Both the position numbers and the translations under genes were made by a program. The notes below the pieces were generated by a model that made no database searches, was not told where the DNA came from, and saw nothing but the letters and a program-made list of their open reading frames with translations. Source: Hymenobacter canadensis (GTDB lineage: Bacteria > Bacteroidota > Bacteroidia > Cytophagales > Hymenobacteraceae). Taken from it: a stretch of DNA of 64,000 nucleotides. Location of the stretch: positions 1,302,001 to 1,366,000 of the forward strand of contig NZ_CP114767.1 of NCBI RefSeq assembly GCF_027359925.1, written 5' to 3'. The stretch's first letter is position 1; every line of letters begins with the position of its first letter. This document shows positions 8,481-32,655 of this stretch, piece by piece.

Positions 8481-11400
8481 ATGCTGGCGGTGATGGCCCC
8501 TTGCTTTATACCCATGCTTGCTTTCGACTTACCGAACCTACACCAGTTCGCCGCTTTGCTACCCGATGGCCTGCTGCTACTGGCCCCCGATGGCACCATC
8601 CGGATTATCAACGCGGCGTATAGTGCCTTGTGGCCGGTACCCCACGACCCGATGGCCTGGCACGGGCGGCCCATAGCCGAGTTGGTGGCGGCCACAGGGA
8701 CGCTGCTGGCCAACCCAGCTGGCGGGTGGGGAAACCTGACCGCCCCGGCCGCTGCACCCTGGCAGCTGCCGCTGCAGAGTGGCCGCGTGCTGGAGCTGAG
8801 CTCAGCCAGGCTGCCGGAACCGGCGGCCGGCTGGCTGGTACGGGCCCGGGAGGTAACCGCTGAGTGCCAACTTCAGGCACCATTGCAAGACCTGGCCAGC
8901 ATTGCGGAACAGTCGCCTAACCTGGTGCTGCGCTTCAGCTCGCAGGGCCACCTGACGTATGCCAACGAAATAGCCCGGCAATTTCGCCACGGCCTGGAGC
9001 CGGCCGAATGGCACGCGCTGCAGGACCAGCTCCGGCAACTGGCCACCGCCAGCCTGCGGCCGGCCGGCCCATGCGAAGCCGGGCTAAGCGGCGGCGGGCG
9101 GCACTTCCGGCTGGTGGCCCGGCCCCGGCCCGCGTTGGGCTACACCACGCTTTACCTCAACGACATCACCGAACAGCACCAAGCCGAACGATACCTGACG
9201 CAGCAACAGGCCTTTTACAACTCCATTCTCAACGAGCTACCCGGCGACATTGCCGTTATCGGGCCCGACCGCCGCTACCAATACGCCAACCCGGCCGCCA
9301 TCCGCGACCCGGCAATCAGGGCCTGGATTGTGGGCAAAACGGACGCCGAATATTGCGTTTACCGCAACGCACCCATGGAACGGGCAGAGTTCCGGCGCAG
9401 CCTGTTCGACCAGGCGCTGGCCACGCGCACGGCCGTGGAATTTGAAGAGGCTATTCCGCACGCTGGGGGCACCTCCTACTTCCTGCGGCGCTTGCAGCCC
9501 GTATTCCGCCCCGATGGCGCGCTGGACTTTATCATCGGCTACGGCATGAACATCACGGACCGGCGGCTGGCCCAGGAGAAGCTCCGCGAAAGCGACCAGC
9601 TGCTGCGCGAACAACAGGCTTTTCAGCAGCTGGTCCTCGACGTGATACCGACCGCCGTGTACGTTCGGGAGCAGGGCCAGACCACCTTTGCCAACCGGGC
9701 CATGCAGGAGCTAATAGCCCAGACCCACGGCCTGGCGGAACTGGTGCGCCAGCACCCCGATGGCCCCGAAGCCCGGGCCGTGGCGGAGTACAGCCGCAGC
9801 GACGCCGAAGTGCTGGCAACTGGCCGGGAGGTGCAGGCGGAGGATTCCCTGACCCTGGATACCGGCGAGGTGCGCTGGTTCCAGACCGTGAAATACCCGT
9901 TTCCCCGGCCGGATGGCCAAGTGCTGGTACTCGGAGCCAGCACCGACGTGACGGCCAGCAAGCGGGCCCGCCTGCAACTGGAGCGCAGCGAGAAGCGCTA
10001 CCGCGACTTGCAGTACTATGCCCAGGCCCTCATCTACACCCACAACCTCGACGGGTGTCTGCTCACGGCCAACCCGGCCTGCGCCCGCCTGATGGGCTGC
10101 ACGGTGGCCGAGTTGACGGCCGCGCCGCTCACGCAGGTGCTGCCGCTTCGGCTCGCGCGGGAAGTGCCTCACTACCTAGGAGAGCTGGCCCGGGAAGGAG
10201 AATTCCGGGGCGTGCTGCAGGTGAATGCCGGGCCGGGCCGGCGGCGGTTTGTACTCTGCCACAGCCACGTAGTGCACGCCCCCGACGAGGCCCCGTACGT
10301 CATCGGCTACGGCCAGGACATCACCGACCTGATACTGGCCGAGCAGGAGATGCGGCGGGCCAAAAACGCGGCCGAAACCGCCGCCCAGGCCCGCACCACG
10401 TTCCTGGCCAACATGAGCCACGAAATCCGCACGCCCCTGAACGGGGTGCTGGGCATGGCCGCGCTGCTGGCCCGCACGGGCCTCTCGGGAGAGCAGCGCG
10501 AGCAGCTGGCCGTCATTCAGGCTTCGGGCCAGCACCTGCTGGGCGTCATCAACGACGTGCTGGACGTGGCCAAGATTACGGCCGGCAAGCTGGAGCTGGA
10601 ATTCACGCCCTTCAACCTGAGCGAGTCGGTGCAGCAGACGCTGGAGCCCCTGGCCCGGCAGGCGGCCGACAAGGGCCTGGCTTTCAGCCTGGACCTGCCC
10701 ACGGCCAGCCCCTGGGTGCTCGGCGACCCGTTCCGCCTGAACCAGATTCTGCTGAATCTGGCCGGCAATGCCCTCAAATTCACGCCCGCCGGCAGCGTGC
10801 GCGTCGCCTGCCAGCTGCTGGCCCACACCCCGCAGAGCCTGACGCTGGCCTTCAGCGTCTGCGACACGGGCATCGGCATTCCGCCCGATAAGCTGGCGCA
10901 CATCTTCGACAGCTTCACGCAGGCCAACGCCGACACCACCCGGCAGTTTGGGGGCACGGGCCTGGGCCTGAGCATCAGCCAGGCCCTAGTGCGCGAGTTT
11001 GGGGGCCAGCTGACCGTGGACTCGCTGCCGGGCCAGGGCAGCACCTTTGCTTTCCAAATCTCGCTGCCGGTGGCCGCCGCTCCCGCCCACGCCGCCGACC
11101 TGTACCTGGACGAGGAGCCCCTGCTGGGCCTGCGCGTGCTGCTGGTGGAAGATAATACCATCAACCGCCTGGTGGCCCGCGAGATGGTGGTGAGCTGGGG
11201 CGGCGTGGTAGATGAAGACCCCGACGGACCGGCGGCCGTGGCCCTGTTTGAGCAGCACGAGTACGACGTGGTGCTGATGGATATTCAGCTGCCGGGCATG
11301 AGTGGGCTGGAAGTGACGGCGCGGTTTCGCCAATACCTCGATGCGCGGCGGGCCCGCACCCCCATCCTGGCCCTCACGGCCAATGCCTACGTCTCGGATA

Positions 11401-11513: not shown

Positions 11514-11740
11514 CCGGCCGCCTCCACCACCTGGACGAGTGTCCGGAAAATAGACGATAGCGAGGCCGCACAACCGTTTAATAAATACTGATAGTCAATT
11601 ACTTACCTCACAAAAACAACATGGCATAACTCTGGCACTCCGGGAGTGTCGGATCTACCAAGCGGGTGAGAGAATTCTCTGGACCTGGGTAGCCTCCGGA
11701 CAGCACCCTTATTTCCCTACCCGGTTTACGCCCCTGTTTT

Positions 11741-12133
11741 ATGGCATCCATTGCTCCTGCCACCACTCCCGCTGCGACTGCCGCAGAAGTGCCATTGTAC
11801 CATTTCAACCGCTTGGGCCGGCTGGGTCAGAACCCGGGCTTTGTGCGCGAAATCAAGCAGCTGTTTGTGGGCCAGGTGCCGGAGCAACTGCTGGAGCTGC
11901 GCGCCGCCATTGCGGCCGCCGACTGGCCACAGGTAGCGCACCTGGCCCACAACCTGAAGGCCATGTTCGGCAACCTGGGCATGGAAGACGCGGTTTCCCA
12001 ACTGCGCCAGGTGGAGAGCCTGGCCCAGCAGGCCGCCGACCAGCGCCAGCAGCAGCTTATTGTGCGGGCCGTGGAAACCACCGCGACGGTGGTAGCGCAG
12101 CTGTTTACCCAGGATCTGCAGCAACCGACCTGA
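11741..12133 (+). CDS. HPt phosphotransfer protein
   Basis: 130 aa. A single histidine-phosphotransfer domain: the four-helix core carries AHNLKAMFGNLG, with phospho-accepting His70, close to the family pattern HxLKG-x5-G. HPt proteins shuttle phosphate between hybrid-kinase receivers and response regulators in the cytoplasm. It sits 227 bp after the hybrid kinase and only 3 bp before a glycosyltransferase gene, so it is probably co-transcribed with the polysaccharide genes. The likely partners are the receiver of the upstream kinase and the single-domain regulator at 14576; this pairing is inference from position. Confidence 0.88.
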   Translation: MASIAPATTPAATAAEVPLYHFNRLGRLGQNPGFVREIKQLFVGQVPEQLLELRAAIAAADWPQVAHLAHNLKAMFGNLGMEDAVSQLRQVESLAQQAADQRQQQLIVRAVETTATVVAQLFTQDLQQPT

Positions 12134-12136
12134 GGT

Positions 12137-13384
12137 ATGCAGCACCAGGACGTTATTATGCTCTGCCAGCAAAGCTGGGCGCTGCCGCTGGGCACCAATG
12201 CCCGCAGTCTGGCCCGGGAGTTTGCCCGGGCCAACCGGGTGCTGTACGTGCAGATGCCCCTGGACCTGCACGCCCTGCTCACGGGCCGCCACCGGCCCGA
12301 GGTGCAGCAGCACCTGCGCGTGCTGCGCGGCCAGGCCGAGGGACTGACGGAGGCGGAGCCCAACGTGTGGGTGCTCACCCCCGACTGCCTGGCGCTGTCG
12401 GTGAACCGGCTGCCGGTTGGGCGCGTGTTCGGGTGGGCCAACCAGCTCAATGCCTGGTGGCTGGCCCGCAGCATCGGGCGGGCGGCGCGGCGGCTGGGCT
12501 TCACGCAGCCCGTGCTGCTGCAGGATGGCATCATCTTTCAGGGCACGGAGCTCAAACGCCTGCTGCGCCCCCGCCACTTTGTGTACTACCTGCGCGACTA
12601 CATGCTGGACGTGCCCTATTTCCGGCGGCACGGGCCGGCCGTGGAGCAACGGCTGCTGCGCGAAGCCGACCTGGTGGCGGCCAACTCCGGCTATCTGGCC
12701 GACTACGCCCGCCGCCAGAACCCGAACAGCTGCGACATCGGGCAGGGCTGCGTGCTGGACCTGTACCAAGCCGATGCCGACCACCCCGAGCCCGCCGACC
12801 TGGCCCCCATTCTGCACCCGCGCATCGGCTACACCGGCTTCCTGACCACCGTGCGCCTAGACCTGCCTTTGCTGGAGCAGCTGGCCCGCCAACGCCCCGA
12901 CTGGCAGCTGGTGCTGGTGGGTCCCGAGGACGACGACTTCCGGCGCAGCCCGCTGCACCAGCTGCCCAACGTGCACTTTCTGGGCAACAAGCAGCCCGGC
13001 CAGCTGCCGGCCTACGTGCAGCACCTGGATGCCTGCATCAACCCGCAGCTCAACAACGCCACCACGGCCGGGAATTACCCGCTCAAAATCGACGAGTACC
13101 TGGCCATGGGCAAGCCCGTGGTAGCCACCCACACCCGCACCATGGACCTGTTTGCCGACCACGTTCTGCTGGCCGACCACGCCGACCAGTGGCCGGCGCT
13201 GCTGGAAGCCGCCCTGGCTGGCGAGGTGCCACAGCGGGCCGCCGCGGGTATTGCCTTTGCCCGCAGCCACACCTGGGCGGCCAGCGCCGGCCGCCTGTAC
13301 GCCGCCCTGGCCGCCCTGCCGGAGCCAGCGCCGGAGCTGGCCCCGGCTACCGCCTTCGCCCTCACTCCCGCCCGCCTCGCCTGA
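12137..13384 (+). CDS. GT4-type glycosyltransferase
   Basis: 415 aa, GT-B fold. The N-terminal half has sugar-acceptor-domain features (SWALPLGTNARSLAREFA). The C-terminal half has a nucleotide-sugar-binding region (QLVLVGPEDDDF, then VHFLGNKQPGQLPAYVQHLDACINP) and ends in the common EYLAMGKPVVAT motif of family 4 transferases, resembling TuaH-like polysaccharide enzymes. It transfers a sugar to a lipid-linked repeat unit on the cytoplasmic face of the membrane; donor and acceptor cannot be read from the sequence. The gene starts 3 bp after the HPt stop and ends 5 bp before the next glycosyltransferase, indicating tight co-transcription. Confidence 0.88.
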   Translation: MQHQDVIMLCQQSWALPLGTNARSLAREFARANRVLYVQMPLDLHALLTGRHRPEVQQHLRVLRGQAEGLTEAEPNVWVLTPDCLALSVNRLPVGRVFGWANQLNAWWLARSIGRAARRLGFTQPVLLQDGIIFQGTELKRLLRPRHFVYYLRDYMLDVPYFRRHGPAVEQRLLREADLVAANSGYLADYARRQNPNSCDIGQGCVLDLYQADADHPEPADLAPILHPRIGYTGFLTTVRLDLPLLEQLARQRPDWQLVLVGPEDDDFRRSPLHQLPNVHFLGNKQPGQLPAYVQHLDACINPQLNNATTAGNYPLKIDEYLAMGKPVVATHTRTMDLFADHVLLADHADQWPALLEAALAGEVPQRAAAGIAFARSHTWAASAGRLYAALAALPEPAPELAPATAFALTPARLA

Positions 13385-13389: not shown

Positions 13390-14535
13390 ATGGCTGCTAA
13401 AACCCGAATTCTGCAAACCATCCGCCAGGGCCAGATTGGCGGCGGCGAAACCCACGTGCTGGACCTGGTGGCCCACCTCGATACGCGGCGGTTCGAGCCC
13501 GTGGTGCTTTCCTTCACGCCCGGCCCCATGGTGGAGCAACTGCGCGCCCGGGGCATAACCACCCACGTCATTCACACCGAGCGGCCGTTTGACGCACCCA
13601 ACTGGGGCCGCGTGGAGCAGCTGCTGCGCCAGGAACGCATTGATCTGGTGCACGCCCACGGCACGCGCGCCTTCAGCAATACCTGCTGGGCCGCCCGCCG
13701 GCTGCGCCTGCCCACTATGTATACCGTGCACGGCTGGTCGTTTCACCCGGACCAGCCCGCGCTGGTGCGCCGGTACCGGCAGCTGACCGAGCGGCTGCTC
13801 ATCAGCCAGGCCGATGTGACGGTGTGCGTATCGGAAAGCAACTACCAGGACGGGCGCACCTTCTGTAGCATGGACCGCGCCCAGGTTATCCGCAACGGCA
13901 TCAACCTGAGCCGGTTCAGCCCGCGCGAGCAGCCGCCGCGCCACATCCGGGCGGCGCTGGGCATCAGCGAAGACACCCTGCTGGTGGGCTTTCTGGCCCG
14001 CATGACGGCCCAGAAAGACCCGCTGACGCTGCTGCGCGCCGCCGCCCTGCTGCCCCGCGAGCTGCCGGTGAAATTCCTGCTGGTGGGCAGCGGCGACCTG
14101 CAGCCGGCCGTGCGCGCGGAAGTGCAGCGGCTGGGCCTGCAGGACCGCGTGGTGCTGGAAAACTTCCGCTCCGACGTGCCCGACGTGCTGCAGGCCCTGG
14201 ATGTGTACTGCCTGCCCTCGCTCTGGGAAGGCCTGCCGCTGGGCGTGCTCGAAGCCATGGCCATGGGCAAACCCGTGGTGGCCACTGCCATCGACGGCAC
14301 CTGCGAGGTGATTACGCCCGGCCACGACGGGCTGCTGGTGCCGCCCCGGCAGCCGCAGGCCCTGGCCGATGCGCTGCTGCTGCTGCTCACCAACGCGCCG
14401 CTCCGGGCCGAGATGGGCCGGCAGGCCCGGCGCACGGTGCAGGCCGAATTTGGGGCCGAAGCCATGGTGCGGCAGGTGGAAGCCCTCTACCAGCATCTGG
14501 CCGTACCTGCCGCCACCCTGGCCCTACCCTACTGA
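13390..14535 (+). CDS. GT4 family glycosyltransferase
   Basis: 381 aa, GT-B retaining transferase. The N-terminus has the GGGETHVLDLVAHL glycine loop and RIDLVHAHGTRA. The C-terminal half has VGFLARMTAQKDPLTLLRA, FLLVGSGDLQPAV and the E-x7-E motif (PSLWEGLPLGVLEAMAMG) typical of GT4 enzymes. The start is the ATG at 13390; the frame is open much further upstream (to 12367), but that part only overlaps the previous gene in another frame. Probably adds one sugar of the repeat unit. Co-transcribed with its upstream neighbour (5-bp gap). Confidence 0.92.
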   Translation: MAAKTRILQTIRQGQIGGGETHVLDLVAHLDTRRFEPVVLSFTPGPMVEQLRARGITTHVIHTERPFDAPNWGRVEQLLRQERIDLVHAHGTRAFSNTCWAARRLRLPTMYTVHGWSFHPDQPALVRRYRQLTERLLISQADVTVCVSESNYQDGRTFCSMDRAQVIRNGINLSRFSPREQPPRHIRAALGISEDTLLVGFLARMTAQKDPLTLLRAAALLPRELPVKFLLVGSGDLQPAVRAEVQRLGLQDRVVLENFRSDVPDVLQALDVYCLPSLWEGLPLGVLEAMAMGKPVVATAIDGTCEVITPGHDGLLVPPRQPQALADALLLLLTNAPLRAEMGRQARRTVQAEFGAEAMVRQVEALYQHLAVPAATLALPY

Positions 14536-14575: not shown

Positions 14576-14953
14576 ATGAAAAAAACGCTTCTCGTAGTAG
14601 ATGATGAGCAAGTCATTCAGCTTATCCTCCGGCGCTACTTCGCCCCCCACTACACGGTCATTACCCAGTCCAATGGGCTGGAAGCCATGCGCTGGCTGCA
14701 GGCCGGCAACTTCGTGGACGCCATTGTGGCCGACTACAACATGCCCGTGATGGACGGCCTCACCTTCATCCGGCAGCTACGCAGCAGCCTGCTGCACCAG
14801 CAGGTGCCGCTCATCATGCTCTCGGGCAAGGAAGAAACCAGCAACAAAATCCAGTGCCTGCGCCAGGGCGCCGACGACTACATGGTGAAGCCCTTCAACC
14901 CTGAAGAGCTGGAGTTGCGGCTGCAGATTATGCTGCGCAAAGTACTGATCTGA
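14576..14953 (+). CDS. single-domain response regulator
   Basis: 125 aa, receiver domain only: acidic pair Asp9-Asp10 in LLVVDDEQ, phosphoacceptor Asp53 in VADYNMPVMDG, the Ser of IMLSG and the Lys of MVKPF are all present, so it should be phosphorylatable. It has no DNA-binding or enzymatic output, so it acts by protein contact or as a phosphate relay or sink. It ends by overlapping the next gene by one base (TGATG), tying its translation to the initiating sugar transferase. It is a likely recipient of phosphate from the HPt protein and hybrid kinases of this locus, which is inference. Confidence 0.92.
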   Translation: MKKTLLVVDDEQVIQLILRRYFAPHYTVITQSNGLEAMRWLQAGNFVDAIVADYNMPVMDGLTFIRQLRSSLLHQQVPLIMLSGKEETSNKIQCLRQGADDYMVKPFNPEELELRLQIMLRKVLI

Positions 14954-16152
14954 TGCCGATGCAAGTTCGCAAAACCGTCGTTTACGTCTCGGCGGACCCG
15001 CGCGAGGCGGCCCGTTTCCAGCAGCAGTTCGCCGACGATCTGGCCGTGCTGCCGATAGGCAACGCCACCGAGCTGCTGGAGTTGTGCGAGCAGCGCCTGG
15101 GCTCCTTCGAGGCCATTCTTAACGCGGCACCCCTCAACTCGCCCCTCGGCCTGGGCCTGATCCGGACCCTGAAAAAAGACCGGCAGCTCCAGTGCCCCGT
15201 CTTTGTGCTGGCCGACCAGCCCGTGAGCACGCAGGCCCGGAGCCTGCTGCTGGAGGCCGGCGTGGCCGATATTCTGCCGCTGCGCCTGCCCCGCACCGAG
15301 CTGCTGACCCACCTGTACCTGCTGGCCCGTCCTGCGGGCGAGGTAGTGGCCACCCCGTTTGCGTTCCGGATGTCGCCGACCAAGCGGCTGCTGGATGTGG
15401 TACTGGCCGGCGCGGCCCTGCTGTGCCTCTCGCCACTGCTGCTGCTGGTGGCGGGCCTGATCAAGCTGGAGTCGCGCGGGCCGGTGCTGTACTACTCCCA
15501 CCGCGTGGGCACCGGCTACAAGGTATTCAGGTTCTGGAAGTTCCGCTCCATGCGCCCGGATGCCGACAAGCTGCTGGCCTCCATGAAAAACCTGAACCAG
15601 TACGCGGCCAAAGCCCCCGAACCGGGTGACGGCGCGGTGCTCACGGCGGCCACCGTGGTGCAGCTGGGGCTGTGCGAAAGCTGCGCCGCCAGCGGCTCGC
15701 AGTGCCAGCAGCTGCTGATTGACGGGCAGGGCGAGCTGATCTGCGAGAAGCTCTACCGCGACCGGAAAAAGGCGGAGGACGGGGCGGCTTTCGTCAAGAT
15801 TGCCAACGACCCGCGCATCACCCGCATCGGGCACTTCATCCGCAACACCAGCATCGACGAGCTGCCCCAGCTCTGGAACGTGCTCTGCGGCGACATGAGC
15901 ATCGTGGGCAACCGCCCGCTGCCGCTCTACGAGGCCGAGAAGATGATGACCGACCACTCGGCAGCCCGCTTCATTGCCCCGGCCGGCCTCACGGGCCTGT
16001 GGCAGGTGAGCAAGCGCGGCAAGGGCGGGGATATGTCGGAGCAGGAGCGCATTGCCCTCGACGTGGAATACGCCCGCCGCTATTCGCTCTGGGAAGATAT
16101 GCGCATCATTCTGCGCACCATTCCGGCCCTGTTTCAGAAAGAAAACGTGTGA
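14953..16152 (+). CDS. initiating sugar-phosphate transferase with receiver-like N-terminal domain
   Basis: 399 aa. Residues about 140-399 are a polyprenyl-phosphate hexose-1-phosphate transferase of the WcaJ/ExoY family: membrane hairpin LLDVVLAGAALLCLSPLLLLV, then FRFWKFRSMRPDADK, RITRIGHFIRNTSIDELPQ (split here in two), SIVGNRPLP and GLTGLWQVSKRG. It starts repeat-unit assembly on undecaprenyl phosphate. Residues about 8-125 look like a receiver fold (KTVVYVSADPR, then DILPLRLPRTELL) but lack the acidic pair and the phosphoacceptor Asp, which is replaced by ILNAAPLN. Between conserved blocks is a Cys insert, C241-x2-C244-x6-C251-x12-C264, perhaps binding a metal. It overlaps the response regulator by one base. 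Confidence 0.9.
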   Translation: MPMQVRKTVVYVSADPREAARFQQQFADDLAVLPIGNATELLELCEQRLGSFEAILNAAPLNSPLGLGLIRTLKKDRQLQCPVFVLADQPVSTQARSLLLEAGVADILPLRLPRTELLTHLYLLARPAGEVVATPFAFRMSPTKRLLDVVLAGAALLCLSPLLLLVAGLIKLESRGPVLYYSHRVGTGYKVFRFWKFRSMRPDADKLLASMKNLNQYAAKAPEPGDGAVLTAATVVQLGLCESCAASGSQCQQLLIDGQGELICEKLYRDRKKAEDGAAFVKIANDPRITRIGHFIRNTSIDELPQLWNVLCGDMSIVGNRPLPLYEAEKMMTDHSAARFIAPAGLTGLWQVSKRGKGGDMSEQERIALDVEYARRYSLWEDMRIILRTIPALFQKENV

Positions 16153-16192: not shown

Positions 16193-16936
16193 ATGCGTGT
16201 ACCAGTACTGTTGCTGTTGGCGCTGCTGCTTTGCGGCAGCGGCGCCCGCGCCCAGCCGACGGCCACCCCGGCCGCCGCCTGGACGACGGTGCTCTTCGAT
16301 GCCCCGGAGCAGGTGCTGCCCGTGCTGCTGGCGGCGGCCCTGCGCCACTCGCCCGAGCTGGAAGCCATGCAGACGGAGAAAGCCATGGCCCAGACCGACC
16401 TGCTGCTGGCGCGCCGGGTGCTGCTGAGCGGCGTTCAGCTCGCCGGCGGCTACGGCTACGGCAACGTGGCCAACCTGACGATGGCCGACCCGACGCTGCC
16501 CCGATCCTACTCTACTACGGCCTCTAGCCGCTACACCACCTCCCTGAACCTGAACCTGCCGCTGGACAAGCTGGTGAACCGCCGCCAGCTGGTGCAGCGC
16601 CAGCAGCTCCAGCTCCAGCAACTGGAGCACCTAAGCCGCGCCCGCCAGACCAGTATACGCCAGCGCGTGATTGACCAGTACCAGGAGGTGCGGCTGGCCC
16701 ACAAGGTGGTGACGCTGCGGCAGCAGGCGCTGCTCTCGGCCCAGCTCAACTACCAGATGGGCGAAAAGCAGTTCCGCAGCGGCGAGCTGGCGCTGGTGGA
16801 TATGTCGCAGCTGACCGACCGGCACGCGGCGGCGCTGGTGGACTACGAAACCGCCGACAGCCGCCTGGCCACGGGGCTGCTGCAGCTGGAGGAGTTGATT
16901 GGCGAAAAGGTGGCCGACCTGCTGCGCCAGCCATGA
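16193..16936 (+). CDS. TolC-like outer-membrane protein, short
   Basis: 247 aa with a signal peptide (VPVLLLLALLLCGSGARAQ). Sequence is that of an outer-membrane efflux family helical hairpin: LLAAALRHSPELEAMQTEKAMAQTDLLLARR, then a beta region (TSLNLNLPLDK) and long Gln/Leu/Arg helices with the SAQLNYQMGEKQFRSGEL repeat. It is about half of a full TolC (400-500 aa), so it probably carries one of the two structural repeats. It ends overlapping the Wzc-like gene by four bases (ATGA). In this context it may help carry the polymer across the outer membrane, but it is not a Wza. Start at the signal peptide Met, 16193. Confidence 0.75.
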   Translation: MRVPVLLLLALLLCGSGARAQPTATPAAAWTTVLFDAPEQVLPVLLAAALRHSPELEAMQTEKAMAQTDLLLARRVLLSGVQLAGGYGYGNVANLTMADPTLPRSYSTTASSRYTTSLNLNLPLDKLVNRRQLVQRQQLQLQQLEHLSRARQTSIRQRVIDQYQEVRLAHKVVTLRQQALLSAQLNYQMGEKQFRSGELALVDMSQLTDRHAAALVDYETADSRLATGLLQLEELIGEKVADLLRQP

Positions 16937-19086
16937 GCCTGGCCGAAGTACTGCGCCTGCTGCTGCGCCACTGGAAGCTGCTGCTGGCCGTGCCGCTGGT
17001 GCTGGGCACCACGGCCTTCCTGCTCACGCGCCACGAGAAGAAAACCTATACCTCCGAAACCACCCTCTACACCGGCATTGCCTCGGGCTACACGCTCAAG
17101 GGCAACGCCGAAACCGACTTCTTCTCCACCAACAACGCCTTCGATAACCTGCTCAACCTCATCAAGTCGCGCGAAACCAAGGAAGAAGTAGCCTACCAGC
17201 TGCTCACCCATCACCTGCAGATGAAAGACCACCTCGACCCGGCCCGGCTCAACTGGAACTCGCTCATGCGGCTGCACGCGCTGCTGCCCGCCGCACTGCG
17301 CCAGCAGCTCACCGGCCCCACCCAGGCCGAAACCCTGGCGCGGGTGCGCGCCTACGCCGGCGCCAACGACACCAACGAGCTGTACCTCCTGCTCAACTCC
17401 TTCGACCCTACCTACTCGGTGGACGCGCTGGGCCACGTGAATGCCTCCCGCATTCAGTCCAGCGACCTGGTGAAGCTGGACTACGAAGCCGAGGACCCGG
17501 CCATCTGCCGCCACACACTGGAGCTCACCACCCAGGTGTTCAGCGAGAAGTACCGCGGCCTGCGCATGGACCAGACGGCCACCGTCATCAAGTACTACGA
17601 GGTAGAAACGGCCCGGGCGCTGGTGCTGCTCAACACGGCCGAGGACAAGTTTCTGGCCTTCAACCGCGACAACAACATCATCAACTACTACGAGCAGACC
17701 AAATACATTGCCGGCGAGCGGGAAGGCCTCTACGCCGACATCACCAAGATTCAGATGCAGTACGCAGCCGCCAAAGCCCGGCTGGCCGCCATCGAGCTGA
17801 AGCTGGCCGGCCGCAACCGGGCGCTACTCAGTACCGGCGAGCTGCTGCAGCAGCGCCGCGAGCTGGAGCAGCTGCAGGCCGGCCTGGCCAACCAGCAGCT
17901 CTACGGCCGGCTGCGCGAGCCGGGCACGCCCACCGATGCGCCGCGGCTGCAGGCCCGCATCGGGGAGCTCACCGAGGCCATGCGCACCACCCTCAACGAC
18001 CACTACAGCCAGCTCAACTCGGTAGAGGGCATCCCCAGCAAGGGCCTGATTGACGAGTGGCTGCGCAACATGCTGGAATGCAGCGACAACAAGGCCAAGC
18101 TGGAGGTGATGCTGCAGCGCAAGCAGGAGTTTATGGAAGAGTACCACAAGATGGCGCCGCTCGGGGCCACGCTCAAGCGCATTGAGCGCGAAATCGAGCT
18201 GACCCAGAAGACCTACCTCGCGCTGCTGACCAGCCTCAACGACAGCCGCGCCTCGCAGCAGAACAACGAGCTGACCACCGACCTGAAGGTGGTGGCCCCG
18301 CCCTTCCTGCCCCTGCACGCCAAGGGCGGCAAACGCCTTATGCTGGTGGCGGGCGGCTCGTTCGGGGGCTTCTTCTTCGTGGCCGCCACCCTGCTGGGGC
18401 TGGGGCTGCTGGACAAGTCGTTGCGCAAGCCCAGCGTGGCCGCGTCCCAGACCGGGCTGCCAGTGCTGGGCGTGCTGCCCCCGCCCTCAGCCACGCCCCC
18501 CGCCCCCGGCAGCTACGCCGATACGGCCCTCGACCACCTGGCCCGCCAAGTGGTGCGCCGCGCCGGCACCCAGGGCGCCCCCACGCCCTTTGTAGTGGGC
18601 CTGGTGAGCACGCGCCGCCACGAAGGCAAAACCCAGCTGCTGCAGGCCCTGGCCATCAAGTGCCGGGCCCTGGGCCTGGAGGTGCTCACCGTCTGCCCCG
18701 AGGGCACCGACGCCGGCCCCGACGCCACCTATTACCCGCCCGCGCTGGCCGTGGTGCAGCGCTGGCCGCTGGCCCGCCTCACCCAGGGCCAGGCCGCCCA
18801 CGTGGTGCTGCTGGAGCTGCCCGCGCTGCTGGAAGACACCTACCCGGTGGCCCCGCTGACCGAGGTGCACCTGCTGCTGCTGGCCCTGAAAAACACCCGC
18901 ACCTGGGAGCCCAAGGACGCCCAGGCGCTGCAGGATCTGCGCAGCCTCACGATGGCCCCCGTGGAAGCGGTGCTCTGCGGCGTGCAGGCCTACGAGAGCC
19001 GGGAGCTGCTGGTGCAGCACGAGCCCGTGCGCCGCCGGCCGCGCCTGCGCCTGGCCTTCTGGCGCCGCCGCGCCGCTACCGCTTAG
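16933..19086 (+). CDS. Wzc/GumC-like polysaccharide chain-length protein
   Basis: 717 aa. N-terminal membrane segment (LLLAVPLVLGTTAFLL, residues 14-30), a large periplasmic coiled region (roughly 35-465, heavy in Glu, Leu, Gln), and a second membrane segment near 475-495 (MLVAGGSFGGFFFVAATLL). The cytoplasmic part resembles a bacterial tyrosine kinase but is degenerate: a Walker-A-like STRRHEGKT (559-567, Lys566), a weak Walker-B-like VVLLELPALL, and no C-terminal Tyr cluster (the tail is Arg-rich). It probably sets chain length with the polymerase while lacking normal autokinase control. Overlaps the TolC-like gene by 4 bp. Confidence 0.85.
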   Translation: MSLAEVLRLLLRHWKLLLAVPLVLGTTAFLLTRHEKKTYTSETTLYTGIASGYTLKGNAETDFFSTNNAFDNLLNLIKSRETKEEVAYQLLTHHLQMKDHLDPARLNWNSLMRLHALLPAALRQQLTGPTQAETLARVRAYAGANDTNELYLLLNSFDPTYSVDALGHVNASRIQSSDLVKLDYEAEDPAICRHTLELTTQVFSEKYRGLRMDQTATVIKYYEVETARALVLLNTAEDKFLAFNRDNNIINYYEQTKYIAGEREGLYADITKIQMQYAAAKARLAAIELKLAGRNRALLSTGELLQQRRELEQLQAGLANQQLYGRLREPGTPTDAPRLQARIGELTEAMRTTLNDHYSQLNSVEGIPSKGLIDEWLRNMLECSDNKAKLEVMLQRKQEFMEEYHKMAPLGATLKRIEREIELTQKTYLALLTSLNDSRASQQNNELTTDLKVVAPPFLPLHAKGGKRLMLVAGGSFGGFFFVAATLLGLGLLDKSLRKPSVAASQTGLPVLGVLPPPSATPPAPGSYADTALDHLARQVVRRAGTQGAPTPFVVGLVSTRRHEGKTQLLQALAIKCRALGLEVLTVCPEGTDAGPDATYYPPALAVVQRWPLARLTQGQAAHVVLLELPALLEDTYPVAPLTEVHLLLLALKNTRTWEPKDAQALQDLRSLTMAPVEAVLCGVQAYESRELLVQHEPVRRRPRLRLAFWRRRAATA

Positions 19087-21608: not shown

Positions 21609-21649
21609 GCGGCGTTTCGTTTCCCCACCCGGCCTTTTCGCTTTCTACG

Positions 21650-22354
21650 ATGACAACAACAACTACCCTTTCCCCGGCTTCGATTTCTGCCGCCGCCGCG
21701 CCCAGCCTGCGGGGGGTGCTGCGGCAGCGCTGGCAGCAGGTGGCCGCGCGCTACCCCCACCGGGGCCCGGCCGGCCGGCTGCTGGCCCTGGCCCTGGATG
21801 GGCTGCAGGGCAGCCTGCGCCTGCTCAGCACCGCCCTGTTTCTGCCGGGCGTACACCGGGGCCGGCTGGTATCGGTGCGGGGGCGGCCGCTGGTGCGCAA
21901 CGAGGGCCGCATCGAGCTGGGCCACCGCGTGCGGGTCTGGTCGCACGTGAGCCGGGTGAAGCTGTTTGTGGGGCCTGGGGCCGTGCTGCGCGTGGGCGAC
22001 GACACCCGCCTGAACGGGGTGCACATTTCCGTAAGCTGCCAGGTCACCATCGGCCACCACGTCCGCCTGGGGCCCAATGTGGTGATTCTCGACGATGACT
22101 TCCACGACGCCGCCCAGCACAATGCCGCCGGCCAGCGCGCCCCGGTCTGCATCCACGACCACGCCTGGATTGCCATGAACGCCCTGATTCTGCAGGGCGT
22201 GACCATCGGCGAAGGTGCGGCCGTGGCAGCCGGGGCCGTGGTAACCCGCGACGTGCCGCCCTACACGCTGGTGGCCGGCGTACCGGCCCGCATTATCCGC
22301 GAGCTGCCCCGCCCGGCTCACTTCACTTCCCCCGTTAACGCTGCCTCCCGATGA
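21650..22354 (+). CDS. hexapeptide-repeat acyltransferase
   Basis: 234 aa. Left-handed beta-helix built from hexapeptide repeats starting near residue 90: GRIELGHRVRVWSHV, AVLRVGDDTRLNGVHI, CQVTIGHHVRLGPNV, then ILDDDFHD with the conserved Asp/His, AWIAMNALILQGVTIGEGAAVAAGAVVTRDVPPY and the VAGVPARIIRE end motif. Such WcaF/maltose-acetyltransferase-like proteins O-acetylate sugars using acetyl-CoA. The substrate is presumably the exopolysaccharide repeat. The start is the ATG at 21650; the reading frame extends upstream only as a shadow. Overlaps the next gene by 4 bp. Confidence 0.88.
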   Translation: MTTTTTLSPASISAAAAPSLRGVLRQRWQQVAARYPHRGPAGRLLALALDGLQGSLRLLSTALFLPGVHRGRLVSVRGRPLVRNEGRIELGHRVRVWSHVSRVKLFVGPGAVLRVGDDTRLNGVHISVSCQVTIGHHVRLGPNVVILDDDFHDAAQHNAAGQRAPVCIHDHAWIAMNALILQGVTIGEGAAVAAGAVVTRDVPPYTLVAGVPARIIRELPRPAHFTSPVNAASR

Positions 22355-23628
22355 ACGACCTCCTCCTTGGGCTGACCGACGTCCTGGTGGCGGCCGGCTG
22401 GCTGCTGCAGCTCGTGCTGAACGGGGCGCTGCAACTGCTGGGCCTCTACCTGCTGGGCAACGTGCTCTACCTGCTGTTTTTTGCCTTAGCCGGGCACCGC
22501 CGGGCCCGCGTGCTGCCGCCCGCGCCGGCAGCGCCGGCCGCGCCCCGCCGCATGTGCGTGCTGCTGCCCGCTTACCAGGCCGACGCCGTGATTCTGCAGA
22601 CGGCCCCCGCCGCCCTGGCCCACGCCTACGCCGGCGCTCTGACTGTGTGCGTGGTGGCCGACGGACTGCAACCCACTACCGTGGCCGCGCTACGCACCCA
22701 AGGTGCCCAGGTGGTGGAAGTGCGGTTTGCGCGCAGCACCAAAGGCCAGGCGCTGCAGGCGGCTTTGGCCACCCTGCCCGCTACCGCCTACGACGTGGCC
22801 GTGGTGCTCGATGTGGACAACGTCATGGCCCCCGGGTTTCTGGCCCGCGTGAACGAGGCCTTTGCGGCTGGCTACCAGGTGGTGCAGGGCCACCGCACGG
22901 CCAAGAACCTGGACTCGCCCTTCGCCGTACTCGACGCCTGCAACGAGGCCATCAACAACCACATCTTCCGGCTGGGCCACGCCCGCCTGGGCATGTCGGC
23001 CTCGCTCATCGGCTCGGGCATGGCCTTCGACTACACCTATCTGCAGCAGTTGCTGCACAACATCGGCGAAACGGCCGGCGAGGACAAGGAAATCGACTTC
23101 CGCATCCTGCGCGACGGGGTGCCCATCGGCTACCTGCCCGAGGCCGACGTCTACGACGAGAAGATTGCCAACGCCGGCGTATTCGGCACCCAGCGCACCC
23201 GCTGGATGGCCGCGCAGCTGGAGTTTCTGCGCAAATACGGCCCCGAGGCGCTCAGCCAGCTGCGCCGGGGCCGCCTGGAGTTCGTGGATAAGATTGTGCA
23301 GTCGGCCTTGCTGCCGCGGGTGCTGCTGCTGGGGCTGCTGACGCTGCTGCTGGGGCTGGCCCTGCTGCTGCCCGCCGGCTGGGGGCCGCCGCCCGCGTGG
23401 TGGGCCGGGCTGCTGGCCGGCACCGCGCTGGCCCTGCTGCTGGCGTTGCCCCGCCGCTTCTACTCGCGGCCGGTGGCCACGGCCCTGCTGCACCTGCCGC
23501 TGGCGCTGCTGGCTATGACGCGGGCTTTAAGCCGGCTGGGCCGGGCCCGGGGCACCTTCCTGCCCACGCCCCACGCGGCCCACGCCCCGCAACCTCCCGA
23601 ACCGGCCGCTGCGCCGCTCCCCTCCTGA
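22351..23628 (+). CDS. membrane-bound processive-type GT2 glycosyltransferase
   Basis: 425 aa. N-terminal membrane segment (about 10-48), catalytic GT-A domain with VLLPAYQAD, DxD-type Asp154/Asp156 in VLDVDNVM, GEDKEIDF (catalytic Asp region, 243-250) and QRTRW at 281-285, which is the QxxRW motif of processive transferases such as cellulose and hyaluronan synthases. Two or three C-terminal membrane helices and a Pro/Ala tail end it. QxxRW enzymes usually build polymers or transfer through the membrane. It could extend a linear backbone in parallel to the Wzy route, or simply add one sugar; the sequence cannot tell. Confidence 0.87.
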   Translation: MNDLLLGLTDVLVAAGWLLQLVLNGALQLLGLYLLGNVLYLLFFALAGHRRARVLPPAPAAPAAPRRMCVLLPAYQADAVILQTAPAALAHAYAGALTVCVVADGLQPTTVAALRTQGAQVVEVRFARSTKGQALQAALATLPATAYDVAVVLDVDNVMAPGFLARVNEAFAAGYQVVQGHRTAKNLDSPFAVLDACNEAINNHIFRLGHARLGMSASLIGSGMAFDYTYLQQLLHNIGETAGEDKEIDFRILRDGVPIGYLPEADVYDEKIANAGVFGTQRTRWMAAQLEFLRKYGPEALSQLRRGRLEFVDKIVQSALLPRVLLLGLLTLLLGLALLLPAGWGPPPAWWAGLLAGTALALLLALPRRFYSRPVATALLHLPLALLAMTRALSRLGRARGTFLPTPHAAHAPQPPEPAAAPLPS

Positions 23629-23785: not shown

Positions 23786-24454
23786 ATGTCTCTCGCTTCT
23801 ACTCCCGATTCTGCCGCCGAAGCGGCCCCGGCCGCCCGTAGTTCCGGCCTGGCCGCCCGCATCAAAAGCAGCCCGCAGCTGAAAAAGCTGGCCGCCTGGC
23901 TGCTGTTTCAGCCCCGCCGCTCCCGGCCCCGCTTCTGGGTGAAGTGGCTGGCCAACCCCTTCGTGCACAAGTATGCCCCCGGCTCGCTGGTGCGCCGCGC
24001 CCGCCGCGACCTGGTGCCCTTCCACGCCTTCGAGCTGGGCCGCGACTCCATCCTGGAGGACTACGTGACGGTGGCCAACGGCATGGGCGGCATCCACATC
24101 GGCGACCGGACGCTCATCGGCATCGGCGACGTGCTCATCGGGCCCGTGCGCATCGGCCACCACGTCATTCTGGCCCAGCACGTGGTGCTCTCGGGCCTCA
24201 ACCACGGCTACCAGGACCCCAGCCGCCCCATCCGCGACCAGCCCTGCACGGCGGCCGAGATTGTGGTGGAGGACGAGGTCTGGATCGGGGCCAACGCCGT
24301 GGTGACGGCCGGCGTGCGCATCGGCCGGCACGCGGTGGTGGCCGGCGGCAGCGTGGTCACCAAAGACGTGCCGCCCTACTCGGTGGTGGCCGGCAACCCC
24401 GCCCGGGTACTGCGCCAGCTCAACCCCGCCACCGGCCAGTGGGAACGGGTGTAG
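23786..24454 (+). CDS. hexapeptide-repeat acyltransferase, WcaF-like
   Basis: 222 aa. Left-handed beta-helix with repeats from about residue 80: [61 protein letters not shown] (catalytic His in NHGY), [44 protein letters not shown]. This is the standard sugar O-acetyltransferase layout. A second acyltransferase in the locus suggests the repeat unit is acylated at two positions or on two sugars. It is the last gene before the heptameric repeat island. Confidence 0.88.
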
Positions 24455-24586: not shown

Positions 24587-25750
24587 ATGCTGACAACTCT
24601 TTTCTGGCTGTTTCTGGCCGTAGTACTGTACACTTATCTGGGCTACGGCCTGGTGGTGTGGGTGTGGGCCCGCCTGCGCCCCGGGGTACGCCCCGAACTG
24701 CAGCGCGACTTCACGCCGCCCGTGACGGTGGTAGTGCCGGCCTATAACGAGGCCGATATTCTCGATGCCAAAATCCAGGACTGCCTGGCCCAGGACTACC
24801 CTGCCGACCGCCTGCGCATCCTGGTTATCACCGATGGCAGCACCGACCACTCGGCCCAGGTACTGGCCCGGTATCCGCAGGTGCGCCACCTGCACCAGCC
24901 CCAGCGGGCCGGCAAGTCGATGGCTGAAAACCGCGCCATTCTGTTCGTGGACACGCCTTTCGTGGCCTTCACCGACTGCAACACCCTACTCAACCCCGAG
25001 GCCGTGCGCCGCCTGGTGCGCCACTACGCCGACCCGCTGGTGGGCGCCGTGTCGGGCGAGAAGCGCGTGCAGGCCGACGGCAGCACCGCCGGCGCCGGCG
25101 AGGGCCTGTACTGGCGCTACGAATCCCTGCTCAAGCGCTGCGACTCGGCCATCAGCAGCCTGATGGGGGCCGCCGGCGAACTGGTGTCCTTTCGCACGGC
25201 CCTGTTCAAGCCCCTCGAAGCCGACACCATCCTCGACGACTTCGTGCAGTCCATGCGCATTGTGGGCGAGGGCTACCGGGTGGTGTATGAGCCGGGGGCC
25301 TACGCCACCGAGCCGCCGTCGTTTTCGCTCAAGGAGGAGATGAAGCGCAAGGTGCGCATCTGTGCCGGCGGCTGGCAGGCCATGACGCGCCTGCCGGGTT
25401 TGCTCAACCCGCTGCGGCAGCCGGTGGTCACGTTTCTGTACGGCTCGCACCGGGTGCTGCGCTGGAGCCTGACGCCGCTGCTGCTGGCGTTGCTGCTGCC
25501 CCTGAGCGCGGCGCTGGCCGCCACCCAGGGCGGGGTGTACGCGCTGGCGCTGGCCGGGCAGCTGGCCTTCTACGCGGCAGCCGGCCTGGGCTGGTCGCTG
25601 GCCAGCCGGGGCCGCCCGGCGGGGCGGCTGCTGGTGCCGCTGTACTTCACGCTCATGAACGTGGCCGTGTTCCAGGGTTTCTGGCGCTTTGTGCGCCGCG
25701 CCCAGCCCGCCGCCTGGGACAAGGCCCAGCGGGCGGCCGTGGCCGCCTGA
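24587..25750 (+). CDS. GT2 glycosyltransferase with membrane anchors
   Basis: 387 aa. N-terminal membrane helix (LFWLFLAVVLYTYLGYGLVVWV), then a GT-A domain with VTVVVPAYNEADIL, ITDGSTDHSA, AFTDCNTLLNPEAV as the metal-binding segment and ILDDFVQSMRI for the catalytic Asp. The C-terminal KRKVRICAGGWQAM and several hydrophobic helices resemble poly-N-acetylglucosamine/cellulose synthase-like enzymes. It probably adds or polymerises a sugar at the inner membrane. It starts 10 bp after the heptameric repeat island. Confidence 0.88.
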   Translation: MLTTLFWLFLAVVLYTYLGYGLVVWVWARLRPGVRPELQRDFTPPVTVVVPAYNEADILDAKIQDCLAQDYPADRLRILVITDGSTDHSAQVLARYPQVRHLHQPQRAGKSMAENRAILFVDTPFVAFTDCNTLLNPEAVRRLVRHYADPLVGAVSGEKRVQADGSTAGAGEGLYWRYESLLKRCDSAISSLMGAAGELVSFRTALFKPLEADTILDDFVQSMRIVGEGYRVVYEPGAYATEPPSFSLKEEMKRKVRICAGGWQAMTRLPGLLNPLRQPVVTFLYGSHRVLRWSLTPLLLALLLPLSAALAATQGGVYALALAGQLAFYAAAGLGWSLASRGRPAGRLLVPLYFTLMNVAVFQGFWRFVRRAQPAAWDKAQRAAVAA

Positions 25751-25804: not shown

Positions 25805-27157
25805 ATGCACTTCCGTCAACTCGCGCCCAACCTGCGCAACAACCAGTTTTTGTCGCTGGCCGGCAACGTGGCGGCCTCGGGCCTCACGGTGGTATCGGTG
25901 TCGCTGCTGTTCCGGGGCCTGCCCACGGCGGCCATTGGCGCCTGGGTGTTTTTCCTGTCGATGCTGGGGCTGGGCGAGGCCTTCCGGCAGGGCTGCCTGA
26001 CCACGGGCTTCATCCGGGCCTACGCCGGCGCCGACGCCCCGCGCCGGGCCGAGGTCCTGGGCTCGGCCTGGGCCCTGGGCTTGCTGATTACGGTGGCTCT
26101 GAGCAGCCTGGGGCTGCTGGCACAGGCAGTTCCGGCGCTGGCGGCCAGCCCCAGCCTGGGGCTGTTTCTGCGGTGGTTTCCGCTGCTGTTTCTGCTCACG
26201 CTGCCGGCCTTTATGGCCACCTGCCTGCAGCAGGCCGAGGAGCACTTCGCCCGGCTGCTGCGGCTGCGGCTGCTGATGCAGGGCGCGTTTATCGTGGGCA
26301 TTACGGGGCTGCTGCTGCTGCACCAGCTCACGCTGCTGCGGGTGGTGTACTGCTACCTGGGCGCGGCCGGCCTGACCAGCGCACTCACGCTGCTGCTGGG
26401 CTGGAGCTTCCCCTCGGCGCTGCGCCACCGCTCGGCTGCCACCATGCGTGAGCTGGGTCACTTTGGCAAGTACAGCGTGGGCAGCTACATCGGGGCCTAC
26501 CTGCTGCGCAGCTCCGACACGGTGCTCATCAACTTTCTGCTGGGGCCGGCCGCGCTGGCCGTCTACAACCTGGCCCAGCGCTTCATGGAAATCATTGAGA
26601 TTCCGCTGCGCAGCCTCATGGCCACGGCTATGCCACGGCTGGCGGCGGCCGTCAATCAGCAAAACCGGCCCCTGCTGGCCCACCTGTTTGAGCAGAACGC
26701 CGGCCTGCTTACCTGGCTGCTGCTGCCCGTGGTCATCGGTACGGTGCTGCTGGCCGAGGTGCCGGTGTACCTGGTGGGCGGCAGCCACTACGTGAACACG
26801 GAGGCCGCCAACGTGCTGCGCATTGCCGTGTCGATGGCCCTGCTCTACCCCATCGACCGGTTTACCGGCGTGGCCCTGGACGTACTGGGCAACCCGCGGC
26901 TGAACCTGTACAAGGTGCTGCTGATGCTGGCCGTGAACGTGGCCGGCGACTGGGTGGGCATTCACTTCACCCACAGCATCTACGGCGTGGCGCTGGCCAG
27001 CCTGCCTACCATCCTCACGGGCTTCCTGTTCGGGTATTTGCTGCTGAAACGGTCCTTACCCATCACCATAGCCGGCACGCTGCGCGTGGGGCTGGCCGAA
27101 GTGCGGGCCCTGCTACGCCGCTTCGGGCCGGCTGCGCCCGTCTCCGTCCGCGCCTGA
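25805..27157 (+). CDS. Wzx-type polysaccharide flippase (MOP superfamily)
   Basis: 450 aa with about twelve hydrophobic segments spread over the whole length (for example FLSLAGNVAASGLTVVSVSLLF, LLLVVIGTVLLAEVPVYLVGG-like stretches). The layout matches oligosaccharide flippases that move undecaprenyl-linked repeat units from cytoplasm to periplasm. RNNQFLSLAGN near the start and GHFGKYSVGSYIGAYLLRSSD in the middle are typical of this family. It completes the Wzx/Wzy route together with the ligase/polymerase at 19134. Confidence 0.85.
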   Translation: MHFRQLAPNLRNNQFLSLAGNVAASGLTVVSVSLLFRGLPTAAIGAWVFFLSMLGLGEAFRQGCLTTGFIRAYAGADAPRRAEVLGSAWALGLLITVALSSLGLLAQAVPALAASPSLGLFLRWFPLLFLLTLPAFMATCLQQAEEHFARLLRLRLLMQGAFIVGITGLLLLHQLTLLRVVYCYLGAAGLTSALTLLLGWSFPSALRHRSAATMRELGHFGKYSVGSYIGAYLLRSSDTVLINFLLGPAALAVYNLAQRFMEIIEIPLRSLMATAMPRLAAAVNQQNRPLLAHLFEQNAGLLTWLLLPVVIGTVLLAEVPVYLVGGSHYVNTEAANVLRIAVSMALLYPIDRFTGVALDVLGNPRLNLYKVLLMLAVNVAGDWVGIHFTHSIYGVALASLPTILTGFLFGYLLLKRSLPITIAGTLRVGLAEVRALLRRFGPAAPVSVRA

Positions 27158-27193: not shown

Positions 27194-28093
27194 ATGCGTA
27201 TTGCCCATTTGATCATGGCCCACCGGGCCCCGGCCCAGCTGGTGCGCCAGCTCAGGGGCCTGCATCACCCCCAAGCCGACTGCTTTATTCATCTGGATAC
27301 CAAGGCTGATCTGTCGGTGTTTTCCTTTCTGGGAACCCTGCCGCAGGTGCAGTTTGTGCGGCGGCGCTTTGCCATCAACTGGGGCGGGTTTGGCTTCACG
27401 GAGGCCCTGCTGGCCAGCCTGCGCGAGCTGCTGGCCCACCCGGCCCGCTACGAGTTCATCAACCTGCTCAGCGGCCAGGACTACCCGCTGCGCCCGGCCG
27501 AGGAGCTGCACGCCTACCTGGCCGCGCACCCGGGCCGCTCGTTTGTGGAAGCCGAGCCCATGGGCTCGCCCTGGTGGCAGGCCAACCGCTCCCGCCTGGA
27601 GCGCTACCACCTCACCGACGCCCCCGCGCTGCCCGGCCGCTACGCCGTGCAGCGCGCCCTGAACGCCGTGCTGCCGCGCCGACAGTTTCCGCTGGGCGGC
27701 TACGTGGTGTACGGCGGCAACATGAGCTGCTGGTACACGCTCAGCCGCACCGCCGCCGAGTATTTGGTCAACTTCTTTACCCTGCACCCGGAGCTGCACC
27801 GGTTCGGGCGGCTGAGCTGGGGCTCCGATGAGTTTCTGGTGGCCACGGTGCTCTACAACTCGCCCCTGCGCGAAACCCTGCTCAACAACAGCCTGCGCTA
27901 CATCGACTGGAGCCAGGGCGGGGCCCACCCCAAGCTGCTGACCACCGCCGACCTGCCGGCCCTGCTGGCCTCGGGCCGGTTCTGGGGCCGCAAGTTCGAC
28001 CTCGACACCGATACGGCCGTGCTGGATGAGCTGGATGCCCGGCACCAGAACCGCCTCCAGACGGCGGCCCGCCCCGGCCTGCCGGTTGATTAA
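27194..28093 (+). CDS. GT14 (core-2/I-branching) family glycosyltransferase
   Basis: 299 aa. Begins MRIAHLIMAHRAPAQ and shows FIHLDTKADLS, NWGGFGFTEALLASL, EFINLLSGQDYPLRP, FVEAEPMG, MSCWYTLSRTAAEYL and WGSDEFLVATVLYNSP, the order of blocks in the bacterial branch of the beta-1,6-N-acetylglucosaminyltransferase family (GT14, like xylosyltransferases). It likely adds a branch sugar, often GlcNAc or xylose; the donor here is not known. Unlike eukaryotic members there is no signal anchor, so it is cytoplasmic. 21 bp separate it from the DUF4184 gene. Confidence 0.88.
   Translation: MRIAHLIMAHRAPAQLVRQLRGLHHPQADCFIHLDTKADLSVFSFLGTLPQVQFVRRRFAINWGGFGFTEALLASLRELLAHPARYEFINLLSGQDYPLRPAEELHAYLAAHPGRSFVEAEPMGSPWWQANRSRLERYHLTDAPALPGRYAVQRALNAVLPRRQFPLGGYVVYGGNMSCWYTLSRTAAEYLVNFFTLHPELHRFGRLSWGSDEFLVATVLYNSPLRETLLNNSLRYIDWSQGGAHPKLLTTADLPALLASGRFWGRKFDLDTDTAVLDELDARHQNRLQTAARPGLPVD

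Positions 28094-29985: not shown

Positions 29986-32655
<2,670 letters not shown>

What the first reader, a model, noticed from the sequence alone, without database searches (positions are those of the whole stretch)
8481..32655. Phosphorelay genes woven into an exopolysaccharide assembly locus
A multi-PAS hybrid kinase, an HPt protein, a single-domain response regulator and a sugar transferase with a receiver-like domain are all inside or at the edge of a Wzx/Wzy-type locus, with short or overlapping junctions (3 bp HPt to GT; 1 bp regulator to transferase). A second hybrid kinase closes the other end. The regulator has no DNA-binding output, so control would be by protein contact on the assembly enzymes rather than by transcription. 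This is a plausible undescribed direct signalling link to polysaccharide initiation.
Basis: partly seen in the sequence, partly recalled or inferred. Interest (0 to 1): 0.75.

Follow-up and report, generated by a model that had tools for sequence, protein, structure and literature searches.

The report
Phosphorelay switch for polysaccharide initiation enzyme
Next to the enzyme that starts building a surface sugar polymer, this bacterium and its relatives keep a signalling switch protein, and the enzyme itself carries a worn-out copy of such a switch, so signals probably control sugar production by direct contact rather than through gene expression.

Summary
A hybrid kinase, an HPt protein, a lone response regulator (RR) and an initiating phosphoglycosyl transferase (PGT) with a receiver-like N-domain lie inside a Wzx/Wzy-type locus. 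In 101 same-genus genomes, all 28 RR copies sit beside this PGT and 28 of 29 PGT copies have the RR; 0 of 60 loci of two other PGT families do. The pair recurs across the phylum (82 of 92 sampled loci). In 22 of 28 same-genus stretches a fused kinase-receiver-HPt lies upstream; in 4 the HPt is separate, as in the window. The PGT N-domain has a receiver fold without a working phosphorylation site; its two most conserved positions match the D101/R115 pair of OmpR/PhoB-type receiver dimers. Most likely RR~P docks on this pseudoreceiver and controls the PGT. The principle was reported in 2025 for Myxococcus EpsW/EpsZ (PMC12802240); the Bacteroidota form, with pseudoreceiver and phosphorelay, is a new variant. 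Contact, phosphotransfer and sign of control are inferred. Against: 21 of 30 PGTs lacking the pseudoreceiver keep the RR.

The parts
8481..11513 (+). HK1, hybrid histidine kinase (3 PAS_4 stretches, HisKA, HATPase_c, C-terminal receiver; no HPt)
   Evidence: 74% identical orthologue upstream of HPt in L125
11741..12133 (+). Free-standing HPt protein (130 aa) with H-N-L-K at the phosphoacceptor place
12137..13384 (+). Glycosyltransferase GTa (GT group 1)
13390..14535 (+). Glycosyltransferase GTb (TIGR03088-like, below cut-off)
14576..14953 (+). RR: single-domain response regulator, 125 aa, D9 D10 D53 S83 K105 present, no output domain
   Evidence: co-occurrence
14953..16152 (+). PGT: initiating phosphoglycosyl transferase, 399 aa (397 from the ATG at 14959), DX12P (D148, P161) and DE dyad (D302 E303)
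14968..15327 (+). Pseudoreceiver domain of the PGT (about residues 6-125), (beta-alpha)5; phospho-Asp position is Asn; low-confidence linker follows
15673..15744 (+). Four-cysteine insert in the PGT catalytic domain: C241-x2-C244-x6-C251-x12-C264
   Evidence: invariant in 31 of 31 aligned sequences
16193..16936 (+). TolC-like outer membrane protein (OEP, 247 aa; start read by eye)
   Evidence: neighbour in relatives
16933..19086 (+). Wzz-type co-polymerase with a degenerate BY-kinase-like C-terminal part
19134..20621 (+). Wzy-type multi-pass membrane protein
   Evidence: PF04932 40.1 bits over cut-off 31.7
20670..21608 (+). GT2 glycosyltransferase
21494..22354 (+). Hexapeptide acyltransferase-like ORF (true start probably later, overlaps GT2)
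22351..23628 (+). GT2 glycosyltransferase
23786..24454 (+). Hexapeptide acyltransferase-like
24587..25750 (+). GT2 glycosyltransferase
25805..27157 (+). Wzx-type flippase
27194..28093 (+). Core-2/I-branching-type glycosyltransferase
29986..33096 (-). HK2, second hybrid kinase (PAS, HisKA, HATPase_c, receiver; no HPt); true start may be later
   Evidence: 56% identical orthologue at the same end in L126, L219, L220, L222

Best explanation
A multistep phosphorelay ends on the enzyme that starts the polysaccharide. HK1 (and probably HK2) autophosphorylates and passes phosphate from its own receiver to the HPt protein, which phosphorylates the lone RR. RR~P then binds the PGT directly and switches its activity, mainly by pairing with the PGT's N-terminal pseudoreceiver through the alpha4-beta5-alpha5 face that OmpR/PhoB receivers use to dimerise. 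Shown here: the genes, the receiver fold of the N-domain, loss of its phosphorylation site, intact sites in the RR, tight RR-PGT co-occurrence, fused and split forms of the relay. Inferred: direction of phosphate flow, the physical contact, the interface, and that the effect is activation.
Against: 21 of 30 PGTs without the N-domain still have the RR, so the pseudoreceiver is not required for whatever the RR does. On the PGT tree the N-domain changes state 7 times and the RR 4 times, and their correlation is not significant after kinship. The window protein itself has His at the R115 position. D101 is also common in kinase receivers (15 of 19), so only R115 is telling. The pair could instead serve PGT homodimers or packing. 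A kinase directly upstream was recognised in only 6 of 15 stretches from other genera or higher groups (L233 has one divergent). One same-genus PGT locus (G097, L117 = L144) lacks the RR though a fused kinase remains. No complex could be predicted; pTM of the monomer is 0.47, so domain arrangement is undefined.
Confidence: 0.68

Rival explanations
1. The pseudoreceiver only dimerises the PGT with itself (as the WbaP DUF hairpin does), and the RR acts on another part of the enzyme, e.g. the catalytic domain, as EpsW is modelled to touch both DUF and catalytic domain of EpsZ.
For: RR kept in 21 of 30 PGTs that lack the N-domain; the R115/D101 pair is self-complementary, so it fits a homodimer as well; PMC12802240 models EpsW on DUF plus catalytic domain (discussion read).
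Against: 61 of 62 N-domain PGTs have the RR; the RR itself keeps the same OmpR-type face (R or K at 115 in 58 of 62, D101 in 60 of 62).
Confidence: 0.2
2. The RR is a phosphate sink or feedback partner of the kinase and does not touch the PGT; adjacency is inherited operon order.
For: Single-domain RRs can be sinks (DifD in Myxococcus, introduction of PMC12802240); in the genus a kinase-HPt is usually next door.
Against: In 9 of 15 stretches from other genera or higher groups no kinase was recognised directly upstream but the RR-PGT pair stays; the RR tracks the PGT even in the two genomes with two copies, G012 and G021.
Confidence: 0.08
3. The signalling genes control transcription of the locus or another output (second messenger, motility) through an unlinked protein, and their place in the locus is only for co-expression.
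For: The RR has no output domain, so an unlinked partner is possible; a sigma54-like site precedes the HPt operon, so transcription may be regulated separately.
Against: Immediate adjacency to the PGT from genus to phylum; a receiver-derived domain is fused to the PGT itself.
Confidence: 0.08

Closest known systems
EpsW/EpsZ of Myxococcus xanthus (PMC12802240, mBio 2025)
   Same: Single-domain RR encoded in a Wzx/Wzy EPS locus; target is the initiating monotopic PGT; control at the first step by contact.
   Different: EpsZ is a large monoPGT with a TM-helix bundle and a DUF; here the PGT is of the small type with a pseudoreceiver and a four-Cys insert. EpsW is phosphorylated by the Dif chemosensory kinase DifE; here kinase-receiver-HPt relays are next door. 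Different phylum; the RR is immediately upstream of the PGT.
Small monoPGTs with fused receiver domains, reported by O'Toole et al. 2021 (not held; known only through the discussion of PMC12802240)
   Same: Receiver-type domain on a small monoPGT.
   Different: Whether those receivers are degenerate or paired with a separate RR could not be checked; here the fused domain has lost its site and is paired with a separate intact RR.
OmpR/PhoB-type receiver dimers (PMC4511772, PMC10609481, passages read)
   Same: Top NCBIfam matches of the RR are RpaB, PhoB and OmpR (receiver part only, far below the full-length cut-offs); K/R91, D101, E111, R115 are conserved.
   Different: No DNA-binding domain; proposed partner is a degenerate receiver on an enzyme (heterodimer).

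Membership tests
EpsW/EpsZ-type RR-controlled PGT | Single-domain RR with intact phospho-site encoded in the locus | tested here: met
EpsW/EpsZ-type RR-controlled PGT | PGT is a large monoPGT (TM bundle plus DUF); NCBIfam EpsZ equivalog | tested here: not met
   one hydrophobic segment; NF041877 158 bits against cut-off 800
EpsW/EpsZ-type RR-controlled PGT | RR~P binds and stimulates the PGT | not testable with these tools
   needs binding and activity assays
Monotopic PGT, small (PglC) type | PF02397 catalytic domain with DX12P and DE dyad | tested here: met
   top Foldseek match PglC 8e37
Monotopic PGT, small (PglC) type | Catalytic domain only | tested here: not met
   N-terminal pseudoreceiver and four-Cys insert
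Receiver domain (PF00072) for the PGT N-domain | Receiver fold | tested here: met
   Pfam itself hits 11 of 39 N-domains at E 0.01, not the window's
Receiver domain (PF00072) for the PGT N-domain | Phosphorylatable Asp with acidic pair and Lys | tested here: not met
   0 of 63 N-domains keep the full site
Multistep phosphorelay (His-Asp-His-Asp) | Kinase, receiver, HPt and terminal RR all present | tested here: met
Multistep phosphorelay (His-Asp-His-Asp) | Phosphate actually flows HK to HPt to RR | not testable with these tools
   in vitro phosphotransfer needed
Wzx/Wzy-dependent polysaccharide locus | PGT, GTs, Wzx, Wzz and Wzy in one locus | tested here: met
   Wzy_C PF04932 over cut-off
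Wzx/Wzy-dependent polysaccharide locus | OPX (Wza, PF02563) in the locus | tested here: not met
   three PF02563 places in the genome, none in the window; TolC-like OEP present instead

The most novel reading that the evidence does not exclude
Across Bacteroidota, small initiating PGTs carry a dead receiver as a dedicated docking partner for a live, separately encoded receiver: a live-dead receiver heterodimer that gates a membrane enzyme at the first step of polysaccharide synthesis, fed by a phosphorelay whose HPt has been split from or fused to the kinase at least twice.
Probability: 0.45. Interest if true: 0.76.

Novelty: new variant of a known kind. Interest (0 to 1): 0.64.

Why it matters
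How bacteria decide when to commit scarce lipid carrier and sugar nucleotides to an exported polysaccharide is mostly known at the level of transcription. Direct RR control of the initiating PGT was reported in 2025 for one myxobacterium, whose authors proposed that it might be wider (PMC12802240). Here the same logic appears in another phylum on a different PGT type, with a receiver-derived domain built into the enzyme. That makes the general question testable with soluble single-domain proteins (RR and N-domain) and suggests a switchable PGT.

Tried and rejected
Leader RNA: the region upstream of HPt or RR was compared across loci. No shared element was found; matches are few and between relatives, and Rfam has no hit there. 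Sigma70-type promoters: none found in 8300-17200. The receiver-like domain as a usual phosphoacceptor: rejected. ORF 19427-20788 as Wzy: rejected, shadow frame; identities given for it are by-products of the overlapping real gene. Correlation of N-domain and RR presence on a tree: not significant (4 independent pairs on starred branches; 2 with corrected labels and without controls; fewer than 6 informative pairs cannot reach 0.05). RR-PGT gene fusion as proof of partnership: not found among the hits I looked at; a 958-aa PGT (L304) has a receiver-like stretch by eye but no Pfam receiver. A complex could not be modelled because the structure tool takes single chains.

Limits of the counts. The 92 loci are those that four searches returned as loci (cap 30 each), best scores first, not all hits: one search listed 58 places in 56 of 200 genomes, 106 of 291 genomes, 45 of 395 genomes. 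each searched 101 genomes; 55 of the no-match rows were not printed, and I take the two sets as the same because every handle shown is G000-G100. The class with N-domain is by length (100 or more residues before the catalytic motif), not by a receiver hit in each. The 60 control loci are the best 30 of each search, about 1.5 kb to each side. Three RRs count as incomplete: L188 and L202 have Glu at 53 and a late start, and one further row is short. Kinase receivers: 19 kinases chosen by hand. L009, L010 and L011 are the same places as L125, G191 (L153) and L152 and were not counted; L144 equals L117.

Papers: PMC12802240 (abstract, introduction, discussion, passages); PMC4511772 and PMC10609481 (passages); O'Toole 2021 not held. 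Searches without a description of the Bacteroidota system in their listings: (open-licence library only). The sigma54 consensus, HPt motif, GT-A motif and BY-kinase motifs are recalled.

Full report
What is there. The window lies in a 5.09-Mb genome of 4 contigs; the closest named hit of its PGT is from Hymenobacter rigui (78%). From 8481 to 33096 it holds a Wzx/Wzy-type locus: HK1, HPt, two glycosyltransferases, a lone response regulator (RR), the initiating phosphoglycosyl transferase (PGT), a TolC-like outer membrane protein, Wzz, Wzy (PF04932), GT2 enzymes, two hexapeptide acyltransferase-like proteins, Wzx, a branching enzyme, and on the minus strand HK2. Junctions are tight: HPt to GTa 3 bp, RR to PGT 1 bp overlap or 5 bp gap depending on the ATG, OEP to Wzz 4 bp overlap.

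The RR and the PGT go together. In 101 genomes of the genus the PGT subfamily (E at most 3e-98) is in 27 genomes in 29 copies. The RR (E at most 1e-25) is in 26 genomes in 28 copies, and each copy lies beside a PGT copy. The two genomes with two PGT copies have two RRs. The exception is G097 (L117/L144), where a fused kinase and the PGT remain without the RR. As a control I took 30 loci each of two other PGT families from the same genus: 0 of 60 has a receiver ORF within about 1.5 kb, against 25 of 26 for this subfamily. Over genus, family, order and phylum, 82 of 92 sampled loci have a lone REC ORF directly upstream. Gaps run from overlaps to about 120 bp; the strongly negative ones reflect over-long ORF starts.

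The relay is a unit that splits and fuses. I fetched 28 same-genus stretches from 26 genomes. In 22 the nearest recognised gene upstream of the RR (in L144, of the PGT, the RR being absent) encodes HisKA, HATPase, receiver and HPt in one chain (21 pass the HPt cut-off, L145 does not). Four (L125, L126, L127, L152) have a separate HPt followed by GTa, GTb and then the RR, as in the window. Two (L129, L149) show neither; L129 has a PA14 protein there and L149 is a short contig. In other genera L224, L225, L227, L228 and L230 are fused (no HisKA was detected in L224) and L226 is split in another way, kinase-receiver plus PAS-HPt. The wiring kinase to HPt to RR is therefore read from gene fusion and fission, not from assay. 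Among the separate-HPt loci an HK1 orthologue stands next to the HPt only in L125 (74%), whereas HK2 at the far end has a 56% identical orthologue in G021, G028, G191 and G169, so HK2 may be the older partner of the free HPt. Farther out the kinase next door is often not seen: 6 of 15 stretches from other genera or higher groups have one recognised directly upstream; the RR-PGT pair is in all 15.

What the dead receiver keeps. After clade weighting (about 32 effective clades at 50% identity, my choice) the two most conserved of 124 N-domain columns are those aligned with RR R115 and D101, while the five site positions rank 49 to 120; unweighted they rank 1 and 5. In the OmpR/PhoB family these positions are partners at the alpha4-beta5-alpha5 dimer face (passages of PMC4511772: D97-R111 in RegX3, PhoB R115D partly rescued by D101R, though that text maps D101 to RegX3 Asp96 where the offset gives Asp97; PMC10609481: Arg115-Asp101 bonds in MtrA). 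R115 is Arg in 56 of 63 N-domains and R or K in 58 of 62 RRs, but Arg in 1 of 19 kinase receivers. This is what a receiver kept for pairing, not for phosphorylation, should look like. Cautions: D101 is also common in kinase receivers (15 of 19), the window's own N-domain has His at the R115 place, and a homodimer would use the same pair.

How it most likely works. A signal sensed by PAS-bearing kinases drives phosphate through HPt to the RR; RR~P pairs with the pseudoreceiver and alters the PGT, probably activating it. The precedent is Myxococcus EpsW/EpsZ, where RR~P acts after translation and stimulates the PGT when both are expressed in Salmonella (PMC12802240: abstract, introduction, discussion and passages read). 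That paper notes, from O'Toole 2021 (not held), that some small monoPGTs include receiver domains, and suggests receivers may regulate PGTs elsewhere. Its main text has no word beginning with bacteroid.

Against the simple form. 21 of 30 PGTs without the N-domain still have the RR, and on the PGT tree the N-domain changes state 7 times and the RR 4 times (9 and 4 before two mislabelled rows were corrected). Thus the RR association is more stable than the pseudoreceiver, and the RR may also touch the catalytic domain, as EpsW is modelled to do. The presence correlation is not significant once kinship is allowed for.

Membership. It works like EpsW/EpsZ but is not a member: the PGT fails the EpsZ model by a wide margin (158 against 800 bits) and shows one hydrophobic segment instead of a helix bundle. 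It is a small-type monoPGT with two additions, the pseudoreceiver and a four-cysteine insert invariant in 31 of 31.

Verdict. I rate it a new variant of a known kind, interest 0.64.

Noticed in passing
window 16193-16936: The outer-membrane slot is a short TolC-like OEP and no OPX/Wza gene is in the window. OEP and Wzz matches follow the PGT in 26 of 28 same-genus stretches, and an OEP match lies by the PGT in 10 of 15 wider ones. Export without a local OPX protein looks worth its own study.
   Followed up: partly
window 16933-19086 (C-terminal third): Wzz carries a BY-kinase-like region with a Walker-A-like stretch but, by eye, no Walker A'/B aspartates and no tyrosine tail, so tyrosine-kinase control of polymerisation is probably absent.
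   Followed up: partly
window 15673-15744: Four invariant cysteines (C-x2-C-x6-C-x12-C) inserted in the PGT catalytic domain suggest a metal site; function unknown.
   Followed up: partly
window 11622-11637, upstream of HPt: Sigma54-like site TGGCAT-N5-TGGCA (mononucleotide-shuffle p 0.015); similar sites upstream of HPt in L125, L126, L127 (p 0.055, 0.015, below 0.005) and weaker in L152 (0.135); 2 of 23 leaders of other loci reach p below 0.05.
   Followed up: partly
L188, L202: Two RRs beside N-domain PGTs carry Glu instead of the phospho-Asp (T-E-L), possibly locked on.
   Followed up: no
L304:3253-6129 (-): 958-aa protein with a PF02397 PGT at its end, no Cys insert, a receiver-like stretch by eye before it, and a long N-terminal part without Pfam hit.
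   Followed up: no
window 28904-29893: 329-aa protein without Pfam hit but with a DSD motif as in GT-A glycosyltransferases (recalled), probably another transferase.
   Followed up: no
window 28115-28855: DUF4184 protein (zinc-dependent phospholipase C-like) also appears beside the locus in 8 of 28 same-genus stretches; role unknown.
   Followed up: no
window 7976-8049: tRNA-Thr just upstream of HK1.
   Followed up: no
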